From positions 1 to 15,376 of the forward strand of contig JASMME010000012.1 in assembly GCA_030748365.1 (NCBI GenBank): DNA of 15,376 nt. The letters run 5' to 3'. A program made the translations under genes and the position numbers. How positions within the stretch are numbered: the first letter of the stretch is position 1; each line of letters begins with the position of its first letter. The notes under the pieces were generated by a model, which saw only the letters and a program-made list of their open reading frames with translations, ran no database searches and had not been told where the DNA came from. Of this stretch, positions 1-15,376 are shown piece after piece. The stretch comes from Lutibacter sp. GTDB taxonomy: Bacteria; Bacteroidota; Bacteroidia; Flavobacteriales; Flavobacteriaceae.

Positions 1-3000
1 ACTTTTCGGAGGCTTCTCTTTTCCCTGCAGATTGAACAGACTCTGGGTATAGCCCCCCCTGTTGTTGGGAAGCAGTTCCTGGAAAGTGCCTTTCGTGGGG
101 TTTGGATAACAAGCGAAGGTATCAAATAAGAACAACTGTTCTTCCACCGTACCCTGGCAGTCGAGGTCCGTACTTACTTTTAAGCTGTTTAGCCCCTGTT
201 CTAAGGGGGCTTTATACACATTGGTAGCTACGGTTTCCGTGCTACCGTTGAGCATGACATAGTAGGTGTCTGCTCCGGATAACAGCAAGGTAAGGATGCC
301 GTTGGTTTGGTCTACTTCTGCCCTTCCTGTAAGCAATTCTGGGGCGCCAACCACTACGTTAAAGCACTGCTCATAGTGATCGATTCCTTCAATGGTAACA
401 CATACCTGATAGCTTCCCGCAGTGAGTCCATCGATCAAAAGTGGCGAGGGAGTAGTTTCATTGTAAGTCAGTGGATCCTGCCCTGTAATACTGAGCACAT
501 ATTCATAACTGGTATCTTCTATGCTTATTTCAATGGCGCCATTCTCTCCATCAACACAGGTGGCGTCGGTTGTAACAAGGCTATAGTTTGAAGGGGGAAA
601 AGCGAAGATTTCACATCCATTGGCATCTACCATTGCGCCAGCTGCACTGTTCGGACATTGGTCATCGGTGTCGGAAACCCCATCGTTGTCGCCGTCAAGC
701 ACGGTAAACTGCATCCAGTTGATATTAAACCCCGCGGCAAGCACTTTTATACGAAGCGTGTGAATCCCTTTGGGTAAAAAAAAATCAGTGCCCGTTGTAG
801 ACCATTGCTGCCAACCACCCGTTACGGGGGTATTCAGTTCTCCCAAATAGGTTTCCGCACCGTTGTCCATCAAGTAAAAGCCAATGCGACCAGACTGGTA
901 AGCGGCAGCCAATCGGCAGTCTAACTGATAAGCAGCTCCCTGGGAGACAAAAATTCGATAGTCTGCATAATCTCCCACATCTGTATATCCCAGGTTGACG
1001 CCCCCACCTTCATCGGTAGTATCTTCAGGGGAAAGCCCCTGCATCTGGAAATAATCTTCTGATTCAATCTTGCCAGGAACCCAATGCCTGTCTGGTAAAT
1101 TATTTATAACCACCTCATTGGTAAAGGAACCCAACACCTGCCCGTATACTGAAGCTATCTTGTCGGCGGTATAGCCCAATAAGATTTGATCTGTATGATA
1201 CAAGTAGTCCTCCAAGGAGATGACCAACACCCGGGGGTTCTCAGGATCCAGTTGATAGGCGGAAATTGTCAGGGAATTTCCGTTGACATTCAGGTCAAAA
1301 TCTGTGGGAGACAGGCTGGCCAACGTAGCCTGATCAACAGCGTGATTCAGAACCAGCCTGACTGATTTTTCATCCGTGCCGGTATAGGCATTCAATGGAT
1401 TGAAAGGAACGGATTCAACAGTCGCTGTTTTGGTGAATTCCAGGCTTGATATATTGAATGCCACATCGCTATCCACCTGAAAAACCAAGCTGTGTGATCC
1501 CGCTCCCATCACCACATTATAGATGTTTTTATCAGAGAACTGGGTCCACCCACCGGTCGAACTGACCTGTTGGACTTCCGTTATAGACTCACCATCGAGC
1601 AGCAGGTGGAACTGTCCGCCGGTTTCTGTACTGGCAACAGTGGCCTTTACTGTATAGGCACCAGGTTCCGAGACATGGACCGTATACTTGGTCCACTCTC
1701 CTTGATGGAGGTGTGATAAATGCAACCCATTGCCTGTACCCGTTTCATTTGACTCAATGTCTACCCCATCATTTCGATAGACCCATCCCGCATTCCAGGC
1801 GGTAAATTCACCGGTATCCTGTTGATAGTTTGCATAGTCGCGGTCGTAATAGGCATGGTTCAGCGTTCCCAGGTCATAATCGGATAGGTGTATAAGGCCT
1901 GGAATCGTATGGGTGCTAAAGGGGATGGTTGCGTCTGTTTGGGGCTGCCTGATCATCGCATCGACCACGTCTTTGTTAAAGGTGTTATTGGCTACCAGCA
2001 GGTTGTCAGCGATCTGCATCAGGGAATTATAAGCATTGTCAACAGAGGGCATAGCGGCCTGCCCTCGCCAGTAATTGAGGATTTGCTGATAACCGGCATT
2101 GGTGGCCACTGAAAAAGGGCTGACCGTGGTTTCAAAACGCTTGAAGGGCCACCAGGACCATCCTATGCCTTGTTCTTCAAACAGCTTGATCGCATCGCGG
2201 AACCAAACATTGGAATTTTCCCCCGATTCACCACACCAGATTGGAATGTTGTGTTGATTTCTCATGTCGAGCATCCACTGAATAGACTCCTGAGAGTTGT
2301 AACCCCAATATTTGTGAAAACTATATGCCATATTACTGTCCCATGGGGGCGTTAAGCCCGTAAAATCATTGGCAAACCAGTTCCCTTCGATAAAGATGAT
2401 ATGGGTCTGATCTACCGCCCTGATGGCAGTCGTGATATCGAGGTACAGGGATTTTAACAAGTCGTTATTGTCCATGTTCCAGTTGGTTTCGTTCAGCAGG
2501 TCATAGCCGCCAATCCAGGCTTTGTCGTGGTATCTTTCGGCAAGTTTTCGCCAAAGGGCCACGGTCTTATCCCTGTTTAGGGAGCTTTCCCACAGGGAGG
2601 GCTTGGTTTCGTCATAATCGCAAATATCTGCGTTGTATCCCTGTCCTCCTGGGGCTGCATGCAGGTCTAAAATAAGGTAGATTTCGTTGGAGGCACACCA
2701 GTCTAAAAGCCTGTCAACCATCTCAAAGCCTTTGGGCAACCAGGTATGGCTGCCTGCTACCGGTTCTTCCTCAATGGGCAGGGTAAACAGGTTGTAGTGC
2801 ATGGGCAATCGTACGCTATTAAAACCCCAGCTAGCCAGGGAATCAATGTCTGTTTTGGTCACGTGATTGGCCAACCATGCATCGTAAAAAGCGGCTGTTT
2901 TCGTCTCGCCGATCAGTTCAACCAGTTTTTGTTTAAAGCCGTGTTGGGTGCCAGCTCCCTCTATGTCGGCAGACTGCATCATATAGCCTTCCTGCAACAT

Positions 3001-3141
3001 CCATCCCCCCATACCCACGCCTCTCAAAATGACCTCCTGGCCGTTATGATCGACTATTTTTTTGCCAGCTGTCTGGAGGTGTTGCCCCCAACACAACAGG
3101 CTACAGAGTAAAAAGGAGAGTAAAATAAATGAAGTTCTCAT
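1..3141 (-). CDS. Secreted modular GH5-family glycoside hydrolase with two CBM6-like modules and T9SS sorting domain (partial, 3' end outside window)
   Basis: Open without a stop for 1047 codons from the ATG at 3141 to the window edge, so the C-terminus is missing. Residues 1-19 are a signal peptide ending before GQHLQT. A GH5-like catalytic domain covers about 25-360: DLHAAPGG (159-166), acid/base Glu218 in LLNETN, His276 in SFHKYWGY, nucleophile Glu305 in IWCGES, and aromatic GWSWWPFKR at 327-335. A first CBM6-like module lies at about 412-570, an Ig/X2-like bridge at 573-680, and a second CBM6 at 686-814 starting PGKIESEDY. A thrombospondin-3-like DGDNDGVSDTDDQCP follows at 816-830, then a flavobacterial linker module and a YPNPTKG motif at 1012-1018 that opens a T9SS type A sorting domain. 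It probably cleaves an internal beta-1,4 linkage of a glucan or mannan outside the cell; subfamily and substrate cannot be fixed from sequence alone. It is last in view of the susCD operon, 7 bp after the preceding stop. No strong Shine-Dalgarno sequence is seen, which is usual in this phylum. Confidence 0.9.
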   Translation of the reverse strand, partial: MRTSFILLSFLLCSLLCWGQHLQTAGKKIVDHNGQEVILRGVGMGGWMLQEGYMMQSADIEGAGTQHGFKQKLVELIGETKTAAFYDAWLANHVTKTDIDSLASWGFNSVRLPMHYNLFTLPIEEEPVAGSHTWLPKGFEMVDRLLDWCASNEIYLILDLHAAPGGQGYNADICDYDETKPSLWESSLNRDKTVALWRKLAERYHDKAWIGGYDLLNETNWNMDNNDLLKSLYLDITTAIRAVDQTHIIFIEGNWFANDFTGLTPPWDSNMAYSFHKYWGYNSQESIQWMLDMRNQHNIPIWCGESGENSNVWFRDAIKLFEEQGIGWSWWPFKRFETTVSPFSVATNAGYQQILNYWRGQAAMPSVDNAYNSLMQIADNLLVANNTFNKDVVDAMIRQPQTDATIPFSTHTIPGLIHLSDYDLGTLNHAYYDRDYANYQQDTGEFTAWNAGWVYRNDGVDIESNETGTGNGLHLSHLHQGEWTKYTVHVSEPGAYTVKATVASTETGGQFHLLLDGESITEVQQVSSTGGWTQFSDKNIYNVVMGAGSHSLVFQVDSDVAFNISSLEFTKTATVESVPFNPLNAYTGTDEKSVRLVLNHAVDQATLASLSPTDFDLNVNGNSLTISAYQLDPENPRVLVISLEDYLYHTDQILLGYTADKIASVYGQVLGSFTNEVVINNLPDRHWVPGKIESEDYFQMQGLSPEDTTDEGGGVNLGYTDVGDYADYRIFVSQGAAYQLDCRLAAAYQSGRIGFYLMDNGAETYLGELNTPVTGGWQQWSTTGTDFFLPKGIHTLRIKVLAAGFNINWMQFTVLDGDNDGVSDTDDQCPNSAAGAMVDANGCEIFAFPPSNYSLVTTDATCVDGENGAIEISIEDTSYEYVLSITGQDPLTYNETTPSPLLIDGLTAGSYQVCVTIEGIDHYEQCFNVVVGAPELLTGRAEVDQTNGILTLLLSGADTYYVMLNGSTETVATNVYKAPLEQGLNSLKVSTDLDCQGTVEEQLFLFDTFACYPNPTKGTFQELLPNNRGGYTQSLFNLQGKEKPPKS

Positions 3142-3148
3142 AGAGGGC

Positions 3149-4351
3149 TTATAAATTATCCAGGCCATAGAGGCTTATTTCAGAACCGTGCACATACGTT
3201 TCACTGCCATAATTAGAAGTAATACTCACTTTTAAATAGCGAAAAGCCTCGGTGGTATTGTCTAGGGAGAAATCGTGTCCGGCAGCCGCTTCCTCTAGTT
3301 TCTCAGAGGAAATGTTTCCGTTGGCATCCTTGGGATCACCGATGTCAAAACTACCTATCAGCTCCCACGATTGTTTATCATTACTGGTATATAACTCAAA
3401 AGATCGCATGTTCTCAGATTGGTAATAATAGGGGGTATCAGCGGGTCCGTTGTACCAATAGGCACGTTGCCATAATTTGATCCGGTTGATTTTTGCCTGT
3501 TTGTTTAAATCAATCACAATGTCAAGGGGCCAGTTCAGGATACCCCCGTTCTGATCTCTCCAGATAATAAAATAGCTGTTGTCACTGTCGGTTCCCTGGG
3601 TATCTACAATGTCGTCAAAAAAGTTGTCGGTCTCTCCTTCCCAGGCATTTCCGTTGACCGATAATTGCGAGACCAGGGTCCAGGTGGACTTATCGATCTT
3701 CTCTTCAAATTTTGGCGTAACGGTATCCACAAACACCTTCTCTGTTTTGTTGCCGTTAAAATCTTCAACCATTACGGAAAAATCATAGGGAATGGCTTCC
3801 AGGCCTCTGATAAAAAATGATTCGTTGACTTTGTCAGAAGAGAGGATCCGCTCCTGCTCACTGACCCCATCGTGATAGTACAGGTACACATACACGGTTT
3901 GGGCAGCTATGTTCTCCCAGCTGATCTTAACCCCGCCCAGGTCTGCTTCCAGTGCCATACTTTCCTGTACCAAGTATATAAAGGAGGTAAGGGGGGCCAC
4001 TGTTACCGCAACCGGGTCGGACTGATTGTTACTTTCGTCTACCACAGAAAGATTGATTGTCTGCGGAGTGGTATCTATAAAACCATCTACTTCAAGGGTG
4101 TCATTATGAACACTGGACACCCTAAACACCTCTGTTCCGTTCGGAATGGTGTACACGCCCTTGACATAGAGAATGTCATCATCGTTCGGAAGGTCATAAG
4201 CAATTTTAGCACCGCCATGAGTAGGGATGATGCCTGTAACGGATACTGCTCCCGGAGGGGTCTGGTCTACCGATGCTGTTTCGGCACAATGAATCAACAT
4301 CATCGATATGAGCAGTAGCCAACCTGTTTTATATACGTTCTTCATTTTCAT
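3149..4351 (-). CDS. DUF4959/DUF5126/DUF5000-type surface lipoprotein of a PUL
   Basis: A 400-residue protein with a lipoprotein signal (hydrophobic WLLLISMMLIHC, lipid-anchored Cys22). It is followed by TPPGAVSVTGIIPTHGGAKI, characteristic of the beta-sandwich DUF4959 domain (about 30-125). A second Ig-like domain (about 126-215, DUF5126-like) contains LGGVKISWEN. The C-terminal 215-398 region resembles DUF5000, a discoidin (F5/8 type C)-like fold, with IDLNKQAKINRIKLWQR, SFELYTSNDKQSWELIG and FRYLKVSITSNYG. Such proteins commonly sit just behind SusD in Bacteroidota PULs and are thought to be surface glycan-binding partners; no catalytic residues are evident. It lies 25 bp after the susD-like gene and 7 bp before the GH5 gene, so co-transcription is very likely. 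Residue 3 is an alternative Met start. Family placement is from recalled motifs; the glycan-binding role is inferred from context. Confidence 0.85.
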   Translation of the reverse strand: MKMKNVYKTGWLLLISMMLIHCAETASVDQTPPGAVSVTGIIPTHGGAKIAYDLPNDDDILYVKGVYTIPNGTEVFRVSSVHNDTLEVDGFIDTTPQTINLSVVDESNNQSDPVAVTVAPLTSFIYLVQESMALEADLGGVKISWENIAAQTVYVYLYYHDGVSEQERILSSDKVNESFFIRGLEAIPYDFSVMVEDFNGNKTEKVFVDTVTPKFEEKIDKSTWTLVSQLSVNGNAWEGETDNFFDDIVDTQGTDSDNSYFIIWRDQNGGILNWPLDIVIDLNKQAKINRIKLWQRAYWYNGPADTPYYYQSENMRSFELYTSNDKQSWELIGSFDIGDPKDANGNISSEKLEEAAAGHDFSLDNTTEAFRYLKVSITSNYGSETYVHGSEISLYGLDNL

Positions 4352-4376
4352 AAATTTGAGGTGTTTAATTGGGGCC

Positions 4377-6296
4377 TTACCAACCGGGGTTTTGTACCAG
4401 GTTCGTATTGACGGTCAACTCGCTGATTTTGATAGGATGAAAATAGTCTCTGGGTATGTTAAAGGTACGTTGCCCTACTTCGTCCACCTGGTAATAATCA
4501 TTGGCGTCCACTTCATTTACACGCCAACCTTTAACGGGTGAATTAAAATAGTCTTCAGCCATTTTCCAGCGCCTGATGTCATGGTAACGATGTCCCTCAA
4601 AAGCCAGTTCTATCATGCGTTCCTGCTGAATGATTTCCTTGAGGCCTTGTTTGTCTAAATGCTTATTGGGGGTTTTGGCCAAACTGGCATCGGACCAGGC
4701 AGCTTCAACATGGCGAATCCCTGATCGTTCCCGAATAAGGTTTAGGGCGTCGAATACTTCCTGGGAGGGGCCGTGGTATTCATTATAAGCTTCTGCATAG
4801 TTTAAATACAACTCCGCCATCCTAATCATTGGCCAAGCATAGGAAATGATCTTGTTATAACCGTCTCCCTGTGAATCAGGATGACAAATCTTTTTTAGGT
4901 CATAACCGGTTACCAGGTAATCGTTGGTATTGGCTTTTCTACCATGGGTTTCTCCCCTTCTCATTTGCAGGTTCCATTTTTCACCCCAGGTGCGGTTAAT
5001 CCCCCTGTCAAAACCGATAGAAGCGTAGAAACGGGGCTCTCTTTGGAGGTGAAGGCGAACGGTTTTTTCCCCAACCTGTGCATGCTGTTTGTCTGCCGCT
5101 GGAATGGAAACCAGTTGGAATCTTTGCTGGTAATTAAAGCTGAGATCCTCCTCTATGGGCAGGCCGTTATGGGTATAGTACAATTCTGCCATCCGTAGGG
5201 TGGGAGACAGCCACTGCCATGCCGCCTCTACAGAAGAGGCATTGGGTTTTTTCATAAGTGCCGGCGCCTGCAACTGCCACCAGTTGGTCACCGGATTGGA
5301 ATGGCCCCAAATCAGTTCACTGTTCCACTTATCTGTAAACATATAGCGGTAATTGTACAAAGACCTGACTTCAGAAAACTGAAAGGCCTCGTTGTCAAAC
5401 GCCGCCGGAACGTCGTTATAGTTGTACAGGGCAAGCCCGCTACTCAGGGCCAGTTCAATAGCCGCCTGACTGGCCTCCAAGGCTTTTTTCCATTTTTCCG
5501 GGTCCGCGGTGCTGTTGAAAAAATTAGCACCCCCAGCATCTGAAAAACCGTCATAATCAGTGTTCCCATTAAAAAGAGGGCTGGCTGCATAAAGCAGTAT
5601 TCTCGATTTTAAGGCCACCGCAATCACCTGATCGATTCTCCCCAGGTCATTGTTAGACATAACCCTCACTGGAAGATTTGGAAGGGCATTGTCAATGGTG
5701 TTGATCAGGTAATCAAAACAGTCATCAATACTTTTTCTGGAGACCCTTACCGCTTCCTCTCCGGCAGATATAGGAAGGTTTTCGTCGACAATCGGAATGG
5801 GGCCGTAGAGCCTCATTAACAAGAAATGAAACTGCGCCTTGAGCACTTGGACTTCTGCTTTCCATTGCTCTTTTTCGGCCGTTTCCATGTCGAGAACCCC
5901 GTCGATATTTTCGATAAGGGTATTGCAATTTCTGATCCCTTTCCACAAAGATTCCTGCCCCTGTCCGTTGGCGGAAAAGCCTGACCAGTATCCCATGATC
6001 GGATTGGAAGCAGATTGCATGCCCCGCATCAGTTGAATTCCACCAGGATCGTGGGCGATAGGGGTAGCCACTTCATCAGAAGCAAGCACGTAGGAACCGT
6101 AAATAGCATCTTGGCTTGGTAGAAAATGATAGCAGGTTGCCAGGGCCTTATAAGCGGCCTCTTTGCGTTCAAACAACAAATCGATTTCCTGTGTTTTATC
6201 TGGCACTATGTCTAAATAATCACTGCAGCCCGCACTAAATAGCATAGAGATCAGTGCAAACAATTGGGTTGGTTTGGTAAAATTCATATCTGCCAT
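4377..6296 (-). CDS. susD-like: SusD/RagB-like outer-membrane nutrient-binding lipoprotein
   Basis: A 639-residue protein with a lipoprotein signal (LISMLFSAGCSDYLD, lipidated Cys24) followed by the SusD opening DYLDIVPDKTQEIDLLFE. Helical TPR-like stretches follow, e.g. WKAEVQVLKAQFHFLLMRLYGPIPIV. The C-terminal part has the family hallmarks MIRMAELYLNYAEAYNE, ALNLIRERSGI and ERMIELAFEGHRYHDIRRW, and ends VQNPGW. Its role is to capture oligosaccharide at the cell surface and act as a lid over the SusC partner. The gene starts 2 bp after the susC-like stop, suggesting translational coupling. The second ATG (6287, giving MNFTKPTQ) would give an equally good signal peptide, so the true start may be three codons later. 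The length is somewhat above the family's typical 500-600 residues. Function is certain at family level; the ligand is inferred to match the GH5 substrate downstream. Confidence 0.95.
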   Translation of the reverse strand: MADMNFTKPTQLFALISMLFSAGCSDYLDIVPDKTQEIDLLFERKEAAYKALATCYHFLPSQDAIYGSYVLASDEVATPIAHDPGGIQLMRGMQSASNPIMGYWSGFSANGQGQESLWKGIRNCNTLIENIDGVLDMETAEKEQWKAEVQVLKAQFHFLLMRLYGPIPIVDENLPISAGEEAVRVSRKSIDDCFDYLINTIDNALPNLPVRVMSNNDLGRIDQVIAVALKSRILLYAASPLFNGNTDYDGFSDAGGANFFNSTADPEKWKKALEASQAAIELALSSGLALYNYNDVPAAFDNEAFQFSEVRSLYNYRYMFTDKWNSELIWGHSNPVTNWWQLQAPALMKKPNASSVEAAWQWLSPTLRMAELYYTHNGLPIEEDLSFNYQQRFQLVSIPAADKQHAQVGEKTVRLHLQREPRFYASIGFDRGINRTWGEKWNLQMRRGETHGRKANTNDYLVTGYDLKKICHPDSQGDGYNKIISYAWPMIRMAELYLNYAEAYNEYHGPSQEVFDALNLIRERSGIRHVEAAWSDASLAKTPNKHLDKQGLKEIIQQERMIELAFEGHRYHDIRRWKMAEDYFNSPVKGWRVNEVDANDYYQVDEVGQRTFNIPRDYFHPIKISELTVNTNLVQNPGW

Positions 6297-6298
6297 TT

Positions 6299-9200
6299 TT
6301 AAAATGTTAATTGGAGTCCAAGATTAAAAACCCGTTGTGTTGGATAGCCCAGTCCATTACCGGCCATTTCGGGGTCCCATAGCTTAAATTTACTAAAGGT
6401 GTACAGGTTCAGACCACTCAAATAGAAACGGGCCATGGATACATAGCCCTTTTTGCTCATTTTTTCCGGGAGCACATAGCCTATTTCCACACTTTTAAGT
6501 CTTAAAAAATCGCCGTCTCTCAACCACCAAGTAGCATTTTTTTCATTGTTCGGTACTGCATTGGTAGACAACCTGGGCCAAAAGGCATGCGGATCCGGAT
6601 TGTTATCTGACCAATGGTTCTCTGCAATAATGCTCAGGGCATTGCGCTCGTTCACAAAGGGCGCTATTTGAGATGGATTGATAAAAAAGGATTGCCTGGC
6701 AGCCCCCTGAAAAAAGAAGGACATATCTAGCTGCTTATAGCTGGCGGAGGCTCCAAATCCGTAGACAATTTCTGGCACTGATGGTTTTCCGATAGGCACC
6801 CTGTCAAGCTCATCTACCATTCCGTCACCGTTCACGTCGGTATACTTGATATCTCCAGGCATATAGCCCAGGCCTTGTCCACTGTCCTGGTTAAACTGAA
6901 TCGGTGAATTGGCAATGTCTTCCTCATCTACAAACAAACGCTCTGCCAGGTAGCCCCATTGCTGGTTGATGGAGTGACCAATCCTGCTCAGATAATCGTA
7001 GGCATAAGCCGGCTCTCCGTTCTTTACCACCTTGTTGGTCGCATAGGTAAAATTGGCGCGGGTGCTCAGTATAAAATCTCCTGAAAATGCATGGTTAAAA
7101 TCTAGGGAGGCATCCACACCTCTAGAGTGGGCCTCTCCAATGTTGCTGTTGATCGTGGTGCTTAGACCCATCGTTTCGGGAATATAGTCGCGGGGCATAT
7201 AGATATTGGTTCTCTTTTCAGTAAAATAATCTACCTGTAGGGTTGCTTTTTTGGCAATACCCAGTTCCAGCCCATAATTGGCTTTTTCTGAGATTTCCCA
7301 ACTCACATCAGGATTGGGATAACGGTTAATGATATAGCCCGGATAAGAATTGTTGAAGCCATTCCCAAAGGTATAGCCCATCCCACCATCGTTTATATTG
7401 ACATCCGACAGGTAAAAGAAACGATCATTCGGGTTTGAAATGGCGTCATTTCCTACCAACCCGTAGGTATATTTCAATTTGAGTAAGTTAAAGACCGGGG
7501 TCAGTTTTTCAAAGAAGGGTTCGTTGGAAACAATCCAGCCCAAACCGGCGGAAGGGAAGAACCCAAAACGATGGTTCTCGGCAAATTTTTCCGATCCGTT
7601 ATAGCCAAAGTTAAACTCGGTAAAATAACGACTGTCATAGGCATAGGTTAGTCTGCCGGAAACCCCCATATTTCTGGAAGGCAGGGTGGAATAAGCAGAC
7701 TGGCCTCCGATGGTGTTTAACAGCTCTGTCCTGTTAAAAACCAGGAGCCCACCAACCTGGTGTTTCTCTGAAAAAGTCCGGTTGTATTCAGTAATCAGTT
7801 CAAAATAAAAATTACTGTTGGCAAAATTGCTTACCGAAGGGTTGTTTAGGTATTCTGTACCCTCTTGAATCTGATAGAGGAAATTTTGAACGCCCTGATC
7901 ACTTTGTACCTCGGCAAGTCCGTAGTAAAAAGGGGTAAAACTACGCGTGTTTTCATTGGTGCTGTAATTTTTGACCGAAGCCATTCCCCTGAATTTGAGC
8001 CCTTCAGTAATAAACCCGAGGTCTTGTTCCAACTGGAACTGAGACAAGATTGTAGAAGAGAAACGGTCTTTATACCCCTTGACCATTTCTGCATAGGGAT
8101 TGGGGTAGCCGCCGTTCCCCTTGTTGCCAAATAGCGTATGGTTGAAATACTGCGTGGTTTCGTCTTTTTCAAAGTACTTGGGAAAATTGACCGGGTTTGC
8201 CTGCATGACGCTGTTAAAGAGCTGGTTTGCATTTTCCGAAGGCCCGTTATAACGTTCAAAAAGGGAATAGAATTTTACCGCTGCTTTGGTGGTTTTACTC
8301 AATTTGATATTAATGTTGGCCCTTAGGTTGGACCTTCCTATGTCAATATTGTTGTTGAAATTGTTCAGTGGATCAACTTCTAAGAGTCCGCGCTCCTTGG
8401 TATGTGAAACGGACAGATAGTACTGAGCAATATCTCCCCCTCCATTTACATTGAGGTTTGTTTTGGTATTCAGGGTATACGCTTTAAACAATTCCCCATA
8501 CCAGTCTACATCGGGATACAGGTTCGGATCCAGCTGATTTCTGGTCCCTTCTATTTTTTGCTTGGAATACATCAATAAGGCATTGCTATTCCTAGTTCGC
8601 TGGGCACGGTTATAGAGCTCCATATAGTCTACCGCTCCTAAAAATTGATTGATCCTGGTAGGAGCAGAAATAGCCGTTTCACGCCGGATAGATACTGATG
8701 GTTTTCCTTTTTTACCTTCTTTGGTGGTTACCAGTATTACCCCATTGGCCCCCCTTGCTCCATACAGAGCGGTAGCGGTAGCATCTTTCATGATGGAAAA
8801 GCTGTTGATATTATCTGGCTCAATCCTGGCCAGGTCGGAAGAAGATACCTCTAGGCCATCTACCAGAATTAATGGGTTGTTCTTATAGCCAAAGGACGTG
8901 ACTCCGCGGATAAAAAATTCGGCATTATCCTGGCCTGGTTCGCCCGAACGCTGATAGGAAATAATGCCGGCCATTCGCCCGGCCAAGGCCGCTGTTAAAT
9001 TGGAGGAAGGTTGTATCAGTTCGGCAGGTTTGATGGTGTTGATAGAGGCGATTACACTTTCTTTTTTCTGTTTTTGAAAGGCCACCACCTGCACCTCACC
9101 CAACGACTCCACACTTTCCTTCATAACAATGTTGATGGTTTTGGTAGTGGCAACCTCAACCACCTGCGTATCAAAACCCAGGTAGGAAAACTCGAGCAGG

Positions 9201-9409
9201 TCTCCCGGACCATTAGTTGGAAGGGCGTACTTACCATCAATGGTGGTGGTGGTGCCTTGTTGGCTACCCTTGATGATGATGGAAACACCTGGCAGTGGAA
9301 TCCCTTCCCTGTCCACAACCTCCCCAGATACCAATACTGACTGGGCATAAACTGGAAGACAGACAAGAAAAAACAGGAAGATCGAAGCGTATTTAACGAT
9401 GTGATTCAT
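6299..9409 (-). CDS. susC-like: SusC/RagA-like TonB-dependent outer-membrane transporter
   Basis: A 1036-residue protein with a Sec signal peptide ending at PVYAQS (about residue 23). An N-terminal carboxypeptidase-regulatory-like domain follows (about 26-99), including GVSIIIKGSQQGTTTTIDG. The TonB-dependent plug (about 115-235) shows the SusC signatures LAGRMAGI, FFIRGVTSFG, NNPLILVDGLEV, IEPDNINSFSIMKDATATAL and YGARGANGVILVTTK. The 22-strand barrel runs to the C-terminal LQLTF with terminal Phe1036, the usual outer-membrane signature. It imports oligosaccharides across the outer membrane using TonB energy. It heads the operon, with the SusD partner only 2 bp downstream. There is no N-terminal STN-type signalling extension, so signalling through a FecR/ECF anti-sigma system is not indicated. 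The ATG at 9409 follows a T-rich stretch without an obvious Shine-Dalgarno. Substrate specificity cannot be read from the sequence. Confidence 0.97.
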   Translation of the reverse strand: MNHIVKYASIFLFFLVCLPVYAQSVLVSGEVVDREGIPLPGVSIIIKGSQQGTTTTIDGKYALPTNGPGDLLEFSYLGFDTQVVEVATTKTINIVMKESVESLGEVQVVAFQKQKKESVIASINTIKPAELIQPSSNLTAALAGRMAGIISYQRSGEPGQDNAEFFIRGVTSFGYKNNPLILVDGLEVSSSDLARIEPDNINSFSIMKDATATALYGARGANGVILVTTKEGKKGKPSVSIRRETAISAPTRINQFLGAVDYMELYNRAQRTRNSNALLMYSKQKIEGTRNQLDPNLYPDVDWYGELFKAYTLNTKTNLNVNGGGDIAQYYLSVSHTKERGLLEVDPLNNFNNNIDIGRSNLRANINIKLSKTTKAAVKFYSLFERYNGPSENANQLFNSVMQANPVNFPKYFEKDETTQYFNHTLFGNKGNGGYPNPYAEMVKGYKDRFSSTILSQFQLEQDLGFITEGLKFRGMASVKNYSTNENTRSFTPFYYGLAEVQSDQGVQNFLYQIQEGTEYLNNPSVSNFANSNFYFELITEYNRTFSEKHQVGGLLVFNRTELLNTIGGQSAYSTLPSRNMGVSGRLTYAYDSRYFTEFNFGYNGSEKFAENHRFGFFPSAGLGWIVSNEPFFEKLTPVFNLLKLKYTYGLVGNDAISNPNDRFFYLSDVNINDGGMGYTFGNGFNNSYPGYIINRYPNPDVSWEISEKANYGLELGIAKKATLQVDYFTEKRTNIYMPRDYIPETMGLSTTINSNIGEAHSRGVDASLDFNHAFSGDFILSTRANFTYATNKVVKNGEPAYAYDYLSRIGHSINQQWGYLAERLFVDEEDIANSPIQFNQDSGQGLGYMPGDIKYTDVNGDGMVDELDRVPIGKPSVPEIVYGFGASASYKQLDMSFFFQGAARQSFFINPSQIAPFVNERNALSIIAENHWSDNNPDPHAFWPRLSTNAVPNNEKNATWWLRDGDFLRLKSVEIGYVLPEKMSKKGYVSMARFYLSGLNLYTFSKFKLWDPEMAGNGLGYPTQRVFNLGLQLTF

Positions 9410-9599: not shown

Positions 9600-9625
9600 A
9601 TTGATTCTTTTGTGAAAGACTCAAT
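9600..9625. terminator. Imperfect palindrome at the stop of the DUF3089 gene
   Basis: ATTGA-T-TCTTT-TGTG-AAAGA-C-TCAAT on the plus strand: ten base pairs with one internal mismatch and a four-base loop. One arm includes the TGA stop of the minus-strand DUF3089 gene (9621-9623). On the minus strand it sits exactly where transcription should end, but no T-run follows, so a classical intrinsic terminator is not shown. It may instead protect the 3' end or limit read-through into susC. Confidence 0.35.
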
Positions 9626-10676
9626 CTTGAGGGCGTTGGTGTAACCAACGCTGTACCCGTAGTTCGGCATTGTGACGGATATCCTGCCAAAACAAGTTGA
9701 TATCTCCCCGGTGGTAGCTCTTGTTAAACAAGGCCAAGTACCTGTGCGGAAAATGCGGTAAGGAGGTCCATACAAGGCCGTCGGTCAGGCTAATTTTTAG
9801 GGCCTGTCTGTACAATTTTCCATTGCTGTATAAAAATCCTTTGTGTTGCTGTCGCTGGGTACTGACTGCCCCATCCCAGGTGATCGGATTGGTAGTCACA
9901 GCACCGACATACCAGTTATCCCCTTTTTTAGGGCGCGTATATTGCCGGTAGGTATTCCACGACACAAAGCCGCCAGTGGCCGCTGGCTGGTCCATAGGAC
10001 GCAGGTGCTTAAACGTAGCAGGCTGCACCCCTATCCCAGGCAGGTAGGCGGCCACCAATTGCCGCTGTAGGGGCTTGCCGTCAAAAAATTCCTTTAGCAG
10101 GCGGATGGTATGGGTGGTTCCCTGGCTATGGCTTGCTATAATAATCGGACGGCCCTGGTTGTGGTTGCGCAGGTAATTGACAAAAGCCCTTTTAACATCG
10201 GAATAGGCAAGTTCAAGGGCCTGCCTGCCCCCAGCGGTCAGCTGCTCATAGGCACGTATATGGGCCTGGCGGTAATAGGGCACATAGAGTTTTCCGGCCG
10301 TGGCCCAGGCAGAAGCCTGGAACCGGACTGCCAGGTCAATGACTTTTTTTCTTTCTGTAAGGTCTGTGACAGGACTGTTCCAACGGATATCTTTCGCGTC
10401 GAGTAGCAAGGTAGGATACACATAGAAGACATCAGCTGCCAGGGAATCCGGTGAGCGGGGGCTAAGGGCTTGTAGGACCTCGGGATAGGCCCAAGGCAGT
10501 ACGGCCCAGTTATTTTCCTGATCGTAGTTGGGTGCATTGGGTGCTTTCGTGGAAGCAAAATCCTGGGTTTGGTAGGATACCTTACACCCTATAATGAGCA
10601 ATAATAAGGCCCACAACCAACTTTTTTGGGGGGAAATATTTTGAATAAGACGGTTTATAGTTTTGGCTTTTTTCAT
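9621..10676 (-). CDS. DUF3089-family alpha/beta-hydrolase lipoprotein
   Basis: A 351-residue protein when started at the ATG at 10676 (MKKAKTINRL). That start puts a clean lipoprotein signal (LWALLLLIIGC, lipidated Cys31) near the N-terminus. The in-frame ATG at 10775 would add 33 residues that bury the signal and reach toward the divergent tRNA promoter region. DUF3089 hallmarks are visible: DVFYVYPTLLLD (82-93), ASAWATAGKLYVPYYRQA (121-138), the nucleophile elbow SHSQG with Ser184, AAYLPGIGV (209-217), and the C-terminal HRYLALFNKSYHRGDINLFW (311-330), which probably supplies the acid and His. The family is thought to be esterase-like hydrolases; no substrate is established. It lies upstream of susC on the same strand, with a 211-bp gap holding hairpins and a candidate promoter, so it is probably its own transcription unit. 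A role in de-esterifying PUL substrate is possible but only suggested by proximity. Confidence 0.85.
   Translation of the reverse strand: MKKAKTINRLIQNISPQKSWLWALLLLIIGCKVSYQTQDFASTKAPNAPNYDQENNWAVLPWAYPEVLQALSPRSPDSLAADVFYVYPTLLLDAKDIRWNSPVTDLTERKKVIDLAVRFQASAWATAGKLYVPYYRQAHIRAYEQLTAGGRQALELAYSDVKRAFVNYLRNHNQGRPIIIASHSQGTTHTIRLLKEFFDGKPLQRQLVAAYLPGIGVQPATFKHLRPMDQPAATGGFVSWNTYRQYTRPKKGDNWYVGAVTTNPITWDGAVSTQRQQHKGFLYSNGKLYRQALKISLTDGLVWTSLPHFPHRYLALFNKSYHRGDINLFWQDIRHNAELRVQRWLHQRPQD
9633..9651. repeat. Perfect 8-bp hairpin inside the DUF3089 3' end
   Basis: GCGTTGGTGTAACCAACGC is an exact inverted repeat with 8-base arms and a 3-base loop. It encodes the last residues (QRWLHQR) of the DUF3089 protein and lies 7 bases from the palindrome at 9600-9625, so two hairpins lie in tandem around the stop codon. 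Confidence 0.5.
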
Positions 10677-10816
10677 ATTGTTTAAATATATAAAAAAATA
10701 GGATACAGCACCGTTTTTCAAGGCTTTATACGAGGCTAAAATGCCCCTAATATATGCTGAAGTTTGGCAGCCCATAAAAATCCTTTGGGAAGCGAGAAAA
10801 AATGGGAGGCTTTGTG

Positions 10817-12064: not shown

Positions 12065-12928
12065 TTAGTGTATAAGTAATTTAATGGTGTGATTAGTTCG
12101 CTCGTCGGAGCGAAATTTTAAAACGTAAAGCCCCGTCGGTAGCACAGGCTTGGTAAAGCGGTTGAGCCCAGGCTTGGGTTCCGTATCTTTCTTGTAATAG
12201 ATGCGTTTGCCCAAGGAATTGTACAAACCGATGTCTACTTTTTTTATACCAAGGGGCAAACGGTAGTATATCTCTTGGGTGCTACCTGCCGGATTGGGGT
12301 ATACTTCCAAGTCTTGCCAAGTGATTTCTTCTAGGCCCAGGCCTCCTCCTACTACTGCCGCATAGGCAAATTCACCAAATCCAAGATTATCTTCGTATTT
12401 AACCCAATTGGAGCTAGTGTTGTCACGTCTTAGCAACACAGGTGTTCCTGTTGTGGTTTTGCCTCCATAGGTAGTAGCTGTATTGGTAAGACCGGTTACC
12501 TGAACATCTGTGGAAGAACCGGTACTTTGAGTGACCGTCCAATATTCGGTATCACTAAGTGCATAGTTTACTAAGGATGGGTCTATGGTACCTGAAGGGG
12601 CGGCCTTGGTATAACTTGTTTGGATATTATCATCGGCCGCTGTGGTAATCGTGATAGAAGAACTAGATGATCCATCAGTATGATATCTTGTAGTAGTCCC
12701 TGCTATACCGGCACCGTCCGGCAGACTTGCACCTTCTCCTAAGACAAAATTCCCGCCTTGGGCAACGATAATTGTTTTAGTAGACGTGGTAAAGGTGGTG
12801 CCCTCGGAAAGGTAGAATACACCACCAGATCCCACGAACAAAGATTGGGCATACACAATGGGAGATACCGCAATAAGCAGTACCATATAAACAAGAGAAG
12901 TCCTTAAAAGAAACGTATTCTTTTTCAT
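12065..12928 (-). CDS. Small T9SS cargo protein (type A sorting domain)
   Basis: A 287-residue protein when started at the ATG at 12928 (MKKNTFLLRTSLVY), which gives a normal signal peptide ending at IVYAQS. The upstream in-frame ATG at 12970 would add 14 polar residues before it. The mature N-terminus (29-80) shows a short beta-repeat pattern (GSGGVFYLSEGTTF, AQGGNFVLGEGASL), like the stem of a beta-helix or adhesin. The middle is Thr/Ser-rich with no recognised domain. Residues 208-287 form a classic type A sorting domain: VYPNPAG, KVDIGLYNSLGKRIYYK, LPTGLYVLKF and TIKLLIH. It should be exported by Sec, crossed by T9SS and attached or released at the surface. It is first of a two-gene unit with the protein 16 bp downstream, which it may display or support; that partnership is inference only. 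Confidence 0.85.
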   Translation of the reverse strand: MKKNTFLLRTSLVYMVLLIAVSPIVYAQSLFVGSGGVFYLSEGTTFTTSTKTIIVAQGGNFVLGEGASLPDGAGIAGTTTRYHTDGSSSSSITITTAADDNIQTSYTKAAPSGTIDPSLVNYALSDTEYWTVTQSTGSSTDVQVTGLTNTATTYGGKTTTGTPVLLRRDNTSSNWVKYEDNLGFGEFAYAAVVGGGLGLEEITWQDLEVYPNPAGSTQEIYYRLPLGIKKVDIGLYNSLGKRIYYKKDTEPKPGLNRFTKPVLPTGLYVLKFRSDERTNHTIKLLIH

Positions 12929-12947
12929 TTTTTGCAATTTTTCGTAA

Positions 12948-12957
12948 GCAATATTGC
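12948..12957. promoter_or_regulatory. Short palindrome upstream of the T9SS cargo gene
   Basis: GCAATATTGC is a perfect 10-base palindrome, 20 bases before the start at 12928, with a related TTTGCAA nearby at 12931-12937. It could be an operator half-site cluster, but symmetric 10-mers in AT-rich DNA are common. Confidence 0.2.
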
Positions 12958-13296
12958 AGTGAAAACTCAAAAAACCATATTTTATTGTTTAAAAGTTTAA
13001 ATAGTTCACTTCATTTGTTAATCGGGGGGTTAATTTTAAAGATTGGTACTTGGCTACTATGATTTGGAAAGGTTCCTTTTTATAATAAACACCTATTGTA
13101 ATGCCTGAAAAACTTGTTGCCTTTTTAGAGAGGGTTTGTCACCAAAACCATTGCTGTTTTTAACAACCTCCTTTATTGGTATTTTACCCATTATTACTAT
13201 CCAGGCTTATGCCGTCATGGAAAATACCTAGCTCATGATTCTCTCCTCCGCCAACACAGCCCACAACGTTTACTTTTATATAAAACTTATTTTCGT
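12958..13296. other. Divergent intergenic region
   Basis: About 340 bp of AT-rich DNA between divergent transcription units. Only trivial reading frames are present, such as a 20-codon frame at 13101 without a ribosome binding site. No RNA gene or mobile element was recognised. It must contain the promoter of the minus-strand surface-protein pair, though no good TAnnTTTG match was found on that strand. Confidence 0.5.
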
Positions 13297-13304
13297 TATA
13301 TTTG
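13297..13304 (+). promoter_or_regulatory. -7 box of the AraC-FGE-hydrolase gene
   Basis: TATATTTG is an exact match to TAnnTTTG, 31 bases before the ATG at 13336. It implies a start near 13311 and a leader of about 25 bases. The upstream GTTTAC at 13268-13273 is only a weak -33 candidate. The identical box precedes the tRNA gene at 10817. Confidence 0.55.
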
Positions 13305-13335
13305 GAAGTAGTCATCTTTTTGCAACCCTTACCCT

Positions 13336-15376
13336 ATGTCAGAGATTTACGAAAAAACCCTAGCGGATATTGCGCGTCACTATACTGACAGCCATTACTC
13401 CTCACTCACCTTGTTGGAAAATCTCGGACTGGATAAATCAGCGGTTAGGGAGAGCATCAAAAAAAAGACCCGGCGGTCATTGTCTAATTTTATCCGTTAC
13501 TACCGCCTAAAACAGGCCCAAAAGCTCTTGCGGGAAGGTAGCAGGAATATTTCTGAAGTGGCCTATGACTCAGGGTTCTCCTCCCTGTCTTATTTCTCAA
13601 AATCCTTCAAGGATGAATTTGGCTACAGCCCCAACACCTCCCTAAACAAGCTAAAATTTGTAAGAAAAGGCCAGTCAGTATTAATGGGCCTGATTCAACT
13701 CAGAAAAAAACCAGCCACCCTCCTGTCCGGGGTGCTGTTAGTGGCCATCACTCTTATGGGCATTCCCCAATGGCTTGGTTCAATCAACAGCCCCCAGAAA
13801 ACCCAGCGGTCAATGCTGGCGGCATACGCTGATATCAATGAGGTTTCACTCAAGACACTGAAGACAAACGACACCCTTTCTATTAACGAGGAAATGCAGC
13901 ATTACGATATTTCCTGGCGGCTCAATGATCGTTATGACTGGGTGCCAATTCATAAAATTTCTGATTCTACCTTCCTGTTCCCCTTAAAACTGACCCATCT
14001 TATCCAAATCCGCCTATCGGAAGTAGGAAAAGAGTCTTTTCAGTTTAAAAGTCGTATGTCTTCCTTAAAAAAATTGGCCATCAACCTAGATGTTTTGCAA
14101 GACGAGACCGGTATTTATTTTCCGGCTATGAAATTGAACTTGCCCAATGCCAATTTCCTAAAATCCTATGAAACACTGAACATCAAACCTTTTTATATAG
14201 ACAAATACGAAGTGTCAAACAAAGAGTTCAAGGAATTTGTAGATGACAATGGCTATTATAAAAAAGAGTTCTGGCCCGAAAAAATCCACTACAAAGGGCG
14301 TTTGATTCGTTTTGAAGAGGTCAAGGACCTATTTGTGGACAACTCGGGCTATCCCTCTCCCCGTTACTGGTTTAGGGGAAAATACGAAGCGGGAAAAGAA
14401 CTGTATCCTGTAAGTGGTATCTCGTGGTACGAGGCCACTGCCTACGCAAAATACCGTGGCAAGAGCTTGCCTAGTCTTGGCCAGTGGTTCTATGCTTTTA
14501 ACAGGAATCATCCCAATGATGCCCTTAAGAATGCCAACATCACCTCGGGCAGTCATACCATATCGAGGCTGGAGTCAACCGCCAAAAACTTTTACGGTAT
14601 ACACGACCTTGCGGGCAATGTAAGGGAATGGGTTAAAAACCCCGTCTTGGATAAAAACCAACGCGGAATTCTCGGTGGTTCCTTTGCTGACAACAGCTAT
14701 ATGGCCTTTGATTTCTTTGCGCAAAATGCCTGGAACAGGTCAATTTACAACGGGGTCCGGCTTGTAAAAAACGTGGACCTTGACAGTACGGGAATGATCT
14801 TCTATAAAAAGGGCGTGTCGCGTAACTTTTATAAAAATGCGGCAACGACCGAACGAGAGTGGCAACTTATCAAAAGCCTGTACTCATACGAAAAATCCCA
14901 ACGTTCCTTTGAGCAAAAAACGACCTTCACAAAGGTGCACGACCGGGCCTATTATCGGAAAAGAATCGATATCCTAGACAAAGACGGTACGGTTATCCCC
15001 ATGCACCACCTGTCTTATGATCCGACAAAAAAAGCCGACAAGGCCCTTGTCTATTTCCCTGGATCAAATGCCTTGTTTGAAGACGGCCTTCGTTTCTATT
15101 ATTTTTTTGATACGCTGCTAAAGAACGGTGTCGATATCATCTGTCCGGAATACCTAAGCACCTATTCCCGCAAGGACGAAATCAAGACAGACATCGGAGA
15201 CCTTTCACTGGCGTACAGGGACCATTCTATTACCTGGGTAAAAGAAACGCGCTACGCAGTTGACTACCTGGAACAGGCGGGTATCAGCCCGCATTTTATA
15301 GGGGTGAGCTGGGGCGGCCAAATGGGTGTCAACATCTTGGCCATAGAGCCGCGTTTTAAGACCGGAGTGCTGGTGG
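13336..15376 (+). CDS. Membrane-anchored AraC-type regulator fused to FGE/SUMF1-like and alpha/beta-hydrolase domains (partial, 3' end outside window)
   Basis: The frame is open for 680 codons from the ATG at 13336 to the window edge. Residues 10-105 are an AraC/XylS double helix-turn-helix domain, with FIRYYRLKQAQKLLREGSRNISEVAYDSGFSSLSYFSKSFKDEFGYSP as its core (52-99, key residues A61, L64, I72, V75, A76, G80, F81, Y86, F87, F91, G96). Basic residues at 110-125 precede one transmembrane helix (about 128-147), predicting an N-in, C-out topology. A beta-rich linker covers about 160-260. An FGE/SUMF1-like domain (262-478) shows PFYIDKYEVSNKEFKEFV, YPVSGISWYEATAYAKYRGKSLPS, GIHDLAGNVREW, ILGGSF and NGVRLVK. 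It lacks the paired cysteines of true formylglycine-generating enzyme. An alpha/beta hydrolase follows (about 540 on), with LVYFPGSNAL at 571-580 and nucleophile elbow GVSWGG (Ser658); acid and His lie beyond the window. The FGE-hydrolase half resembles proteins known with an N-terminal Ser/Thr kinase; here the DNA-binding domain replaces the kinase. Function as a membrane one-component regulator is inferred. Confidence 0.9.
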   Translation, partial: MSEIYEKTLADIARHYTDSHYSSLTLLENLGLDKSAVRESIKKKTRRSLSNFIRYYRLKQAQKLLREGSRNISEVAYDSGFSSLSYFSKSFKDEFGYSPNTSLNKLKFVRKGQSVLMGLIQLRKKPATLLSGVLLVAITLMGIPQWLGSINSPQKTQRSMLAAYADINEVSLKTLKTNDTLSINEEMQHYDISWRLNDRYDWVPIHKISDSTFLFPLKLTHLIQIRLSEVGKESFQFKSRMSSLKKLAINLDVLQDETGIYFPAMKLNLPNANFLKSYETLNIKPFYIDKYEVSNKEFKEFVDDNGYYKKEFWPEKIHYKGRLIRFEEVKDLFVDNSGYPSPRYWFRGKYEAGKELYPVSGISWYEATAYAKYRGKSLPSLGQWFYAFNRNHPNDALKNANITSGSHTISRLESTAKNFYGIHDLAGNVREWVKNPVLDKNQRGILGGSFADNSYMAFDFFAQNAWNRSIYNGVRLVKNVDLDSTGMIFYKKGVSRNFYKNAATTEREWQLIKSLYSYEKSQRSFEQKTTFTKVHDRAYYRKRIDILDKDGTVIPMHHLSYDPTKKADKALVYFPGSNALFEDGLRFYYFFDTLLKNGVDIICPEYLSTYSRKDEIKTDIGDLSLAYRDHSITWVKETRYAVDYLEQAGISPHFIGVSWGGQMGVNILAIEPRFKTGVLV

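What the first reader, a model, noticed from the sequence alone, without database searches (positions are those of the whole stretch)
13336..15376. AraC DNA-binding domain fused through a membrane helix to an FGE-like domain and an alpha/beta hydrolase
One uninterrupted frame encodes an AraC helix-turn-helix, one transmembrane segment, a SUMF1/FGE-like fold and a GxSxG hydrolase. The FGE-hydrolase half closely recalls the kinase-FGE-hydrolase proteins often annotated as bifunctional Ser/Thr kinase/formylglycine-generating enzyme. Here a transcription factor replaces the kinase. That would make a membrane-bound one-component regulator whose periplasmic part is an enzyme or pseudo-enzyme sensing a ligand and controlling DNA directly, a logic not described to my knowledge.
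Basis: partly seen in the sequence, partly recalled or inferred. Interest (0 to 1): 0.85.

Follow-up and report, generated by a model that had tools for sequence, protein, structure and literature searches.

The report
Membrane gene switch with enzyme-like sensor
A bacterium carries a single protein that appears to sense something outside its inner membrane with an enzyme-like module and to act directly on DNA inside; the same outside module is found elsewhere attached to kinases and other signalling domains, so it looks like a reusable bacterial sensor.

Summary
One frame (13336-15376, +; cut off by the contig end) encodes an AraC helix-turn-helix, one transmembrane helix, a small beta domain, an FGE/SUMF1-like domain and an alpha/beta-hydrolase. 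It is no frameshift or chimera: 36 further full-length relatives (53-56% identity) and a distant clade keep the layout. The FGE-like domain has no cysteine, so it cannot be a copper-thiolate formylglycine-generating enzyme. The hydrolase triad is intact in 35 of 36 close relatives but lost (N,N,N) in the distant clade. HTH and FGE-like domains are the most conserved parts. The same module is joined elsewhere to Ser/Thr kinases, class III cyclases, TIR-like domains or extra membrane helices. AraC fusions arose at least twice (AU p = 0.007). Best reading: a membrane-tethered one-component regulator whose extracytoplasmic pseudo-FGE/hydrolase module is a ligand sensor with exchangeable outputs. 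The overall logic (ToxR/CadC, SusR) is known, and AraC-TM-TPR proteins exist in relatives; I found no account of this sensor on a transcription factor in the open papers searched. Ligand and target genes are unknown; topology and DNA binding are inferred, not shown.

The parts
13336..15376 (+). gene for the AraC-TM-beta-FGE-hydrolase protein, 680 aa, cut off by the contig end (close relatives 762-775 aa)
13417..13638 (+). AraC-type helix-turn-helix (HTH_18), residues 28-101
   Evidence: Pfam E 4e-16; residues 1-105 64% mean identity to 36 close relatives, second-helix region nearly invariant
13711..13767 (+). single transmembrane helix, residues 126-144
   Evidence: Kyte-Doolittle 1.88; one TM in 38 of 38 AraC proteins; 7 K/R in the 30 residues before and 3 after it
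13867..14079 (+). small beta domain, about residues 178-248, at the place of the PEGA domain of relatives
   Evidence: strands in the model of P0002; Pfam PEGA over its cut-off at the corresponding place in P0102, P0233, P0245, P0262; no Pfam hit in the window protein itself
14170..14769 (+). FGE/SUMF1-like domain, residues 279-478, without cysteine
14908..15376 (+). alpha/beta-hydrolase domain, from about residue 525, truncated by the contig end
15301..15315 (+). nucleophile motif GVSWG, residues 656-660
   Evidence: sequence; aligned Ser in 49 of 50 rows of A1

Best explanation
A membrane-tethered one-component transcription regulator. The AraC HTH lies in the cytoplasm; one TM helix carries a beta domain, a cysteine-free FGE-like domain and an alpha/beta-hydrolase to the periplasmic side. 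The FGE-like domain, probably with the hydrolase active site, binds an extracytoplasmic small molecule or peptide and, most likely by changing dimerisation, alters how the HTH pair sits on its promoter. Shown: domains, single TM by hydropathy, conservation, homology of the module with kinase, cyclase, TIR-like and multi-TM fusions, at least two separate AraC fusions. Inferred: orientation, dimerisation, DNA binding, ligand sensing. Unknown: ligand, targets, whether the hydrolase turns over.
For: Same architecture in 36 close full-length relatives plus P0042 and L038_4; one TM in 38 of 38. HTH (64% mean identity) and FGE-like domain (63%) are most conserved, hydrolase 55%, beta domain 35%, TM 26%, juxtamembrane 18%: DNA-reading and FGE parts are constrained, the connector is free. 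The second-HTH region is identical in 32 of 38 rows and differs at one place in 5 more. The N-terminal types that I could name on this module are signalling or membrane domains; on a tree of 85 chosen rows the type changes at least 12 times, with 2 AraC origins (11 changes and 1 AraC origin on the first tree of 80 rows). FGE domain without cysteine. In the distant clade the triad is N,N,N while HTH, TM and FGE domain remain.
Against: The triad is intact in 35 of 36 close relatives, which suggests that catalysis matters there. K/R counts around the TM are nearly even in most relatives (often 5 before and 4 after), so orientation rests mainly on the HTH having to meet DNA. No shared upstream DNA motif in four regions. 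No conserved neighbour common to window and relatives. Four shorter hits with 49-59% identity, P0038-P0041 (387-498 aa), show FGE but no HTH in Pfam and were not sorted into fragments or lone modules. One N-terminal domain (P0242) stayed unnamed.
Confidence: 0.62

Rival explanations
1. Catalytic sensor: the hydrolase is an active periplasmic esterase/peptidase; turnover of its substrate, or the acyl-enzyme or product held by the FGE-like domain, is what is signalled to the HTH.
For: Ser, Asp and His at the triad positions in 48 of 50 aligned module rows, whatever the N-terminal type; fold closest to acetyl xylan/acetyl esterases.
Against: P0042 and L038_4 keep HTH, TM and FGE domain but have lost all three triad residues; no activity shown; Asp and His of the window protein lie beyond the contig.
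Confidence: 0.22
2. Regulated proteolysis: an extracytoplasmic signal leads to cleavage near the TM helix and release of a soluble AraC domain.
For: The juxtamembrane stretch is poorly conserved and may be flexible (18% identity; pLDDT 57-77 over residues 101-130 of the model).
Against: I saw no obvious protease gene beside the relatives' genes, by eye only; low conservation is also expected of a plain linker.
Confidence: 0.1
3. The FGE-like domain is a real sulfatase-activating enzyme tethered to a regulator.
For: Pfam FGE-sulfatase match over cut-off; automatic names such as 'formylglycine-generating enzyme required for sulfatase activity'.
Against: No cysteine in the FGE domain of the window protein, while FGE binds Cu(I) through two active-site cysteines (PMC12123546, abstract and passages seen).
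Confidence: 0.02
4. Sequencing or assembly artefact joining two genes.
For: The gene runs off a contig of a fragmented MAG (402 contigs); among the 99 other genomes of the 'relatives' search none had a match better than E 5.1e-16, and the rows listed cover only the HTH end of the query.
Against: Relatives with the same layout from ena, jgi, lgn and ncbi sources, and a named MAG; gene GC 0.452 against 0.454 for the rest of the contig.
Confidence: 0.01

Closest known systems
Kinase-(PEGA)-FGE-alpha/beta-hydrolase proteins, annotated as Ser/Thr kinase / formylglycine-generating enzyme / dienelactone hydrolase (P0043 and others)
   Same: Homologous FGE-hydrolase module, with near-invariant triad and FGE-core residues
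   Different: Output is a Ser/Thr kinase instead of an AraC HTH
ToxR-like receptors (CadC, ToxR)
   Same: DNA-binding domain, single TM, extracytoplasmic sensor in one chain (PMC5430869, passages seen)
   Different: OmpR-type DNA-binding domain, not AraC; unrelated sensor domains (recalled for the sensors)
[quoted passage not shown]
   Same: Membrane-anchored regulators; SusR senses in the periplasm (PMC3878776, passages seen); the best PDB match of the window's HTH is a hybrid two-component system protein, 12aw
   Different: SusR has a C-terminal DNA-binding domain without significant similarity to other TFs (same paper); HTCS hold two-component parts, absent here
AraC HTH-TM-TolB-like-TPR proteins of relatives in the window's family (L008, L010, L011, L013)
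   Same: N-terminal AraC HTH, a TM stretch and a large C-terminal half (HTH and TPR by Pfam in L010 and L013; the TM and L008, L011 by eye)
   Different: TPR repeats instead of FGE and hydrolase (TolB-like part named by eye and recall)
Metacaspase-TM-FGE-sulfatase proteins
   Same: FGE domain set apart by TM helices from an effector domain (PMC3501461, passages seen)
   Different: Protease effector, a pair of TM helices; no hydrolase mentioned in the passages seen

Membership tests
AraC/XylS-type DNA-binding proteins | AraC HTH domain over the curated cut-off | tested here: met
   HTH_18 59.5 bits, cut-off 33.6; HTH_AraC 30.7, cut-off 26.6
AraC/XylS-type DNA-binding proteins | Specific DNA binding | not testable with these tools
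   needs EMSA or DAP-seq
Formylglycine-generating enzyme (FGE/SUMF1) | FGE-type domain | tested here: met
   Pfam over cut-off; sequence matches to FGE and SUMF chains; fold match to EgtB, same fold group
Formylglycine-generating enzyme (FGE/SUMF1) | Two active-site cysteines that bind Cu(I) | tested here: not met
   single Cys at residue 603, outside the domain; requirement from PMC12123546
FGE-hydrolase module of kinase fusions | FGE-like domain followed by alpha/beta-hydrolase, homologous over both | tested here: met
FGE-hydrolase module of kinase fusions | N-terminal Ser/Thr kinase | tested here: not met
   only HTH_18, HTH_AraC and FGE-sulfatase found
ToxR-like receptors | Single TM between DNA-binding and sensor domains | tested here: met
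   (hydropathy; topology not measured)
ToxR-like receptors | OmpR-type DNA-binding domain | tested here: not met
   AraC HTH instead
Hybrid two-component systems | Histidine kinase and receiver domains | tested here: not met
   no such Pfam match up to E 1
Active alpha/beta hydrolase | Ser-Asp-His triad | tested here: inconclusive
   Ser present in the window; Asp and His lie beyond the contig; intact in 35 of 36 close relatives, lost in P0042 and L038_4

The most novel reading that the evidence does not exclude
An enzyme-derived extracytoplasmic receptor (pseudo-FGE plus hydrolase) serves as a general bacterial sensor cassette whose output has been swapped many times between kinase, cyclase, TIR-like, membrane-helix and, at least twice, AraC transcription-factor forms; in the AraC forms with an intact triad, substrate turnover at the membrane is read out directly as gene expression, and one clade turned the hydrolase into a pure binding domain.
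Probability: 0.22. Interest if true: 0.82.

Novelty: new variant of a known kind. Interest (0 to 1): 0.6.

Why it matters
The module is common (all 7998 scored candidates passed E 1e-30 in one region search, of which 120 were listed, many of them kinase fusions), and none of the papers listed by my searches was seen to deal with its function. The AraC version is the most tractable form: its output is transcription, so a reporter or a deletion plus RNA-seq could reveal the signal that the kinase and cyclase fusions may sense as well. It would also be a worked case of output swapping on one sensor, and of a hydrolase turning into a sensor.

Tried and rejected
Shared upstream motif: window 12971-13335 against the upstream regions of L036, L005 and L038; best 10- to 20-mers no better than Markov-resampled sequence (as low in 52-83 of 100), so rejected.

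Neighbourhood as a clue to the ligand: L005, L036 and L037 share a syntenic block (DUF6150 by Pfam in L005; other names by eye), but these are near relatives; window and L038 share none of it, apart from a weak 72-residue match between the window's sorting-tail protein and one of L036. A search of the window's own incomplete genome for the secreted upstream protein of L005 found nothing, and without a positive control that shows nothing. A SnoaL-type link is only a lead.

NCBIfam: the 25 shown of 36 families for the window protein all lie far below their cut-offs (EgtB, SenA, GldK, many AraC regulators), so no curated family names it.

TIR identity of the N-termini of P0056, P0069, P0075, P0088, P0105, P0262: named from the sequence pattern; Pfam TIR_2 only at E 0.12 in P0056 and not listed for P0105, and no TIR chain among the 60 shown of 121 PDB matches of profile A3. 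Hence 'TIR-like'.

Plasmid carriage: 15 of 72,556 records matched P0002, none over 80% of it.

Trees: the first made AraC one origin; rows P0233 and P0245, found later, overturned that. In the second tree I dropped three long-branch rows (G689_kin, P0118, P0061) and added eight. Rows were chosen and labelled by me, not at random; both are 'quick' trees. The two AraC rows were added after the first tree was seen, though the label comes from Pfam. The clade of P0042 and L038_4 sits on a very long branch, which the program warns about.

The regex triad count gave 33 of 36; P0003 and P0007 were missed by the regex but read S, D, H in alignment A1, and P0018 has Tyr for His, hence 35 of 36. The G496 locus was not resolved: my ORF picker took another frame in L045, and L055 was fetched but not examined; it is not in the trees.

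Literature. Three gave no paper. In the others I saw listings (titles and starts of abstracts; 20 of 24, 12 of 21 and 12 of 17 papers) and none described an AraC-FGE-hydrolase protein. Most listed papers were not opened, among them the three that hold both 'AraC' and 'FGE-sulfatase'. The library holds open-licence papers only.

Full report

Not an artefact. A search of 5.8 billion proteins (347 hits, 120 listed) found 36 further full-length clusters at 53-56% identity with HTH plus FGE (P0002-P0037) and a distant one at 35% (P0042); four shorter hits without HTH (P0038-P0041) were not sorted. A named MAG, Flavobacteriaceae ANT-5, holds the gene (L005). In 397 genomes of the window's family, 9 had a module match at E 1e-25 or better: 4 AraC-type (G000, G407, G226, G258), 1 cyclase-type (G378) and 4 with other N-termini (G285, G355 with two copies, G364, G156). 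Those open with membrane helices, by eye, in G285 and both G355 copies (one of these cut by a contig edge); in G364 and G156 my ORF list held only a shorter ORF, so their N-termini are unsorted. Among 100 genomes counting the window's own (37 others of the same genus), only the window's own shows the whole protein; no other genome has a match better than E 5.1e-16, and the rows listed cover only residues 4-220 of the query. So the gene is rare and patchy, and 37 congeners searched lack it. In the order and phylum samples, searched with other module proteins, 2 of 395 and 4 of 395 genomes besides the window's own matched.

The enzyme-like half. The window protein has one cysteine, residue 603, outside the FGE-like domain. 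FGE binds Cu(I) through two active-site cysteines (PMC12123546, abstract and passages seen), so this domain cannot do that chemistry. In the 50-row alignment Ser, Asp and His stand at the hydrolase triad positions in 48 rows; the exceptions are the truncated window protein and P0042 (N, N, N). Of 36 close AraC relatives, 35 keep the triad (P0018 has Tyr for His). P0042 and its near relative in G258 (L038_4) keep HTH, TM and FGE domain but have lost all three residues. Catalysis is therefore dispensable in one clade and apparently kept in the other.

Where the constraint lies. Mean identity of the window protein to the 36 close relatives: HTH 64%, juxtamembrane 18%, TM 26%, beta domain 35%, FGE-like 63%, hydrolase 55%; to P0042: 55, 15, 16, 23, 44, 27. 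The second-helix region of the HTH is identical in 32 of 38 rows and differs at one place in 5 more (the window's among them), P0042 differing most. The DNA-reading and FGE parts are held; the connector drifts.

Exchangeable outputs. The same FGE-hydrolase module follows Ser/Thr kinases, class III cyclases (P0053, P0061, P0064, P0072, L040), TIR-like domains (weak support), two- to three-helix membrane segments and AraC domains; P0242 has an N-terminal domain that I could not name. A region search with P0096 returned 7998 hits out of 7998 scored candidates at E 1e-30, the best 120 listed; two of these, P0233 and P0245, are AraC-TM-PEGA-FGE-hydrolase proteins whose module is 55% identical to that of P0096. 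On a tree of 85 chosen rows (quick IQ-TREE; three long-branch rows dropped and eight added relative) the N-terminal type changes at least 12 times, the AraC label at least twice, and one AraC clade is rejected (AU p = 0.007). The HTHs of P0233 and P0245 are closer to those of two AraC-TM-TPR proteins (39-50%) than to the window's HTH (28-31%). A caution: the clade of P0042 and L038_4 sits on a very long branch.

How it most likely works. HTH in the cytoplasm, one TM, beta-FGE-hydrolase outside: a one-component receptor. Ligand binding to the conserved FGE-like core, perhaps with the hydrolase site, would change dimer geometry and so DNA binding. Orientation rests on the HTH having to meet DNA; K/R counts (7 before and 3 after in the window, often 5 and 4 in relatives) support it only weakly. 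Ligand and targets are unknown: no upstream motif stood out and no neighbour is shared by window and relatives. In the window, the gene points away from a SusC/SusD/cellulase locus on the other strand; any regulation of that locus is speculation. The gene downstream is beyond the contig.

Known or new. ToxR-like receptors (PMC5430869, passages seen) and SusR (PMC3878776, passages seen) show the logic; AraC-TM-TPR proteins show the chassis in the same genus and family; metacaspase-TM-FGE proteins show FGE domains as movable parts (PMC3501461, passages seen). Nine literature searches listed no paper whose title or abstract start describes an AraC-FGE-hydrolase protein, and most listed papers were not opened; automatic JGI names already list the domains of some members. 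I rate it a new variant of a known kind, whose main value is that it makes the signal sensed by a large and, as far as these searches show, unstudied receptor module testable through transcription.

Noticed in passing
P0233 (824 aa), P0245 (830 aa): A second, separately arisen group of AraC-TM-PEGA-FGE-hydrolase proteins, with an HTH closer to those of AraC-TM-TPR proteins than to the window's.
   Followed up: yes
P0056, P0069, P0075, P0088, P0105, P0262: TIR-like N-terminal domains (FISYRQ pattern, Pfam TIR_2 only E 0.12 in P0056) joined by a TM helix to the same FGE-hydrolase module; possibly immune-type signalling.
   Followed up: partly
L038:4719-7070 and P0042: AraC relatives whose hydrolase triad is N,N,N: a pseudo-hydrolase clade.
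   Followed up: yes
L041:4329-4844 and L052:2863-3393: 48% identical SnoaL-type genes lie within about 4 kb of multi-TM FGE-hydrolase genes in two genomes (G355, G937) that each have only two SnoaL_2 matches; possible linked small-molecule binder.
   Followed up: partly
L005:5592-6341, L037:10094-10378, L041:7920-8648: A secreted-looking protein family sits directly upstream of the AraC gene in two relatives, and a homolog (31%) lies near a multi-TM version in another genome.
   Followed up: partly
L008, L010, L011, L013: AraC HTH-TM-TolB-like-TPR proteins of about 690 aa in relatives, three of the four in the window's own genus.
   Followed up: partly
window 1-9409: SusC-like, SusD-like, DUF4959/5126/5000 lipoprotein-like and GH5 cellulase with CBM6 genes, all on the minus strand: a likely polysaccharide utilisation locus.
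   Followed up: no
window 9621-10775 and 12065-12970: A DUF3089 alpha/beta-hydrolase gene and a gene with a Por_Secre_tail sorting domain, both on the minus strand.
   Followed up: no
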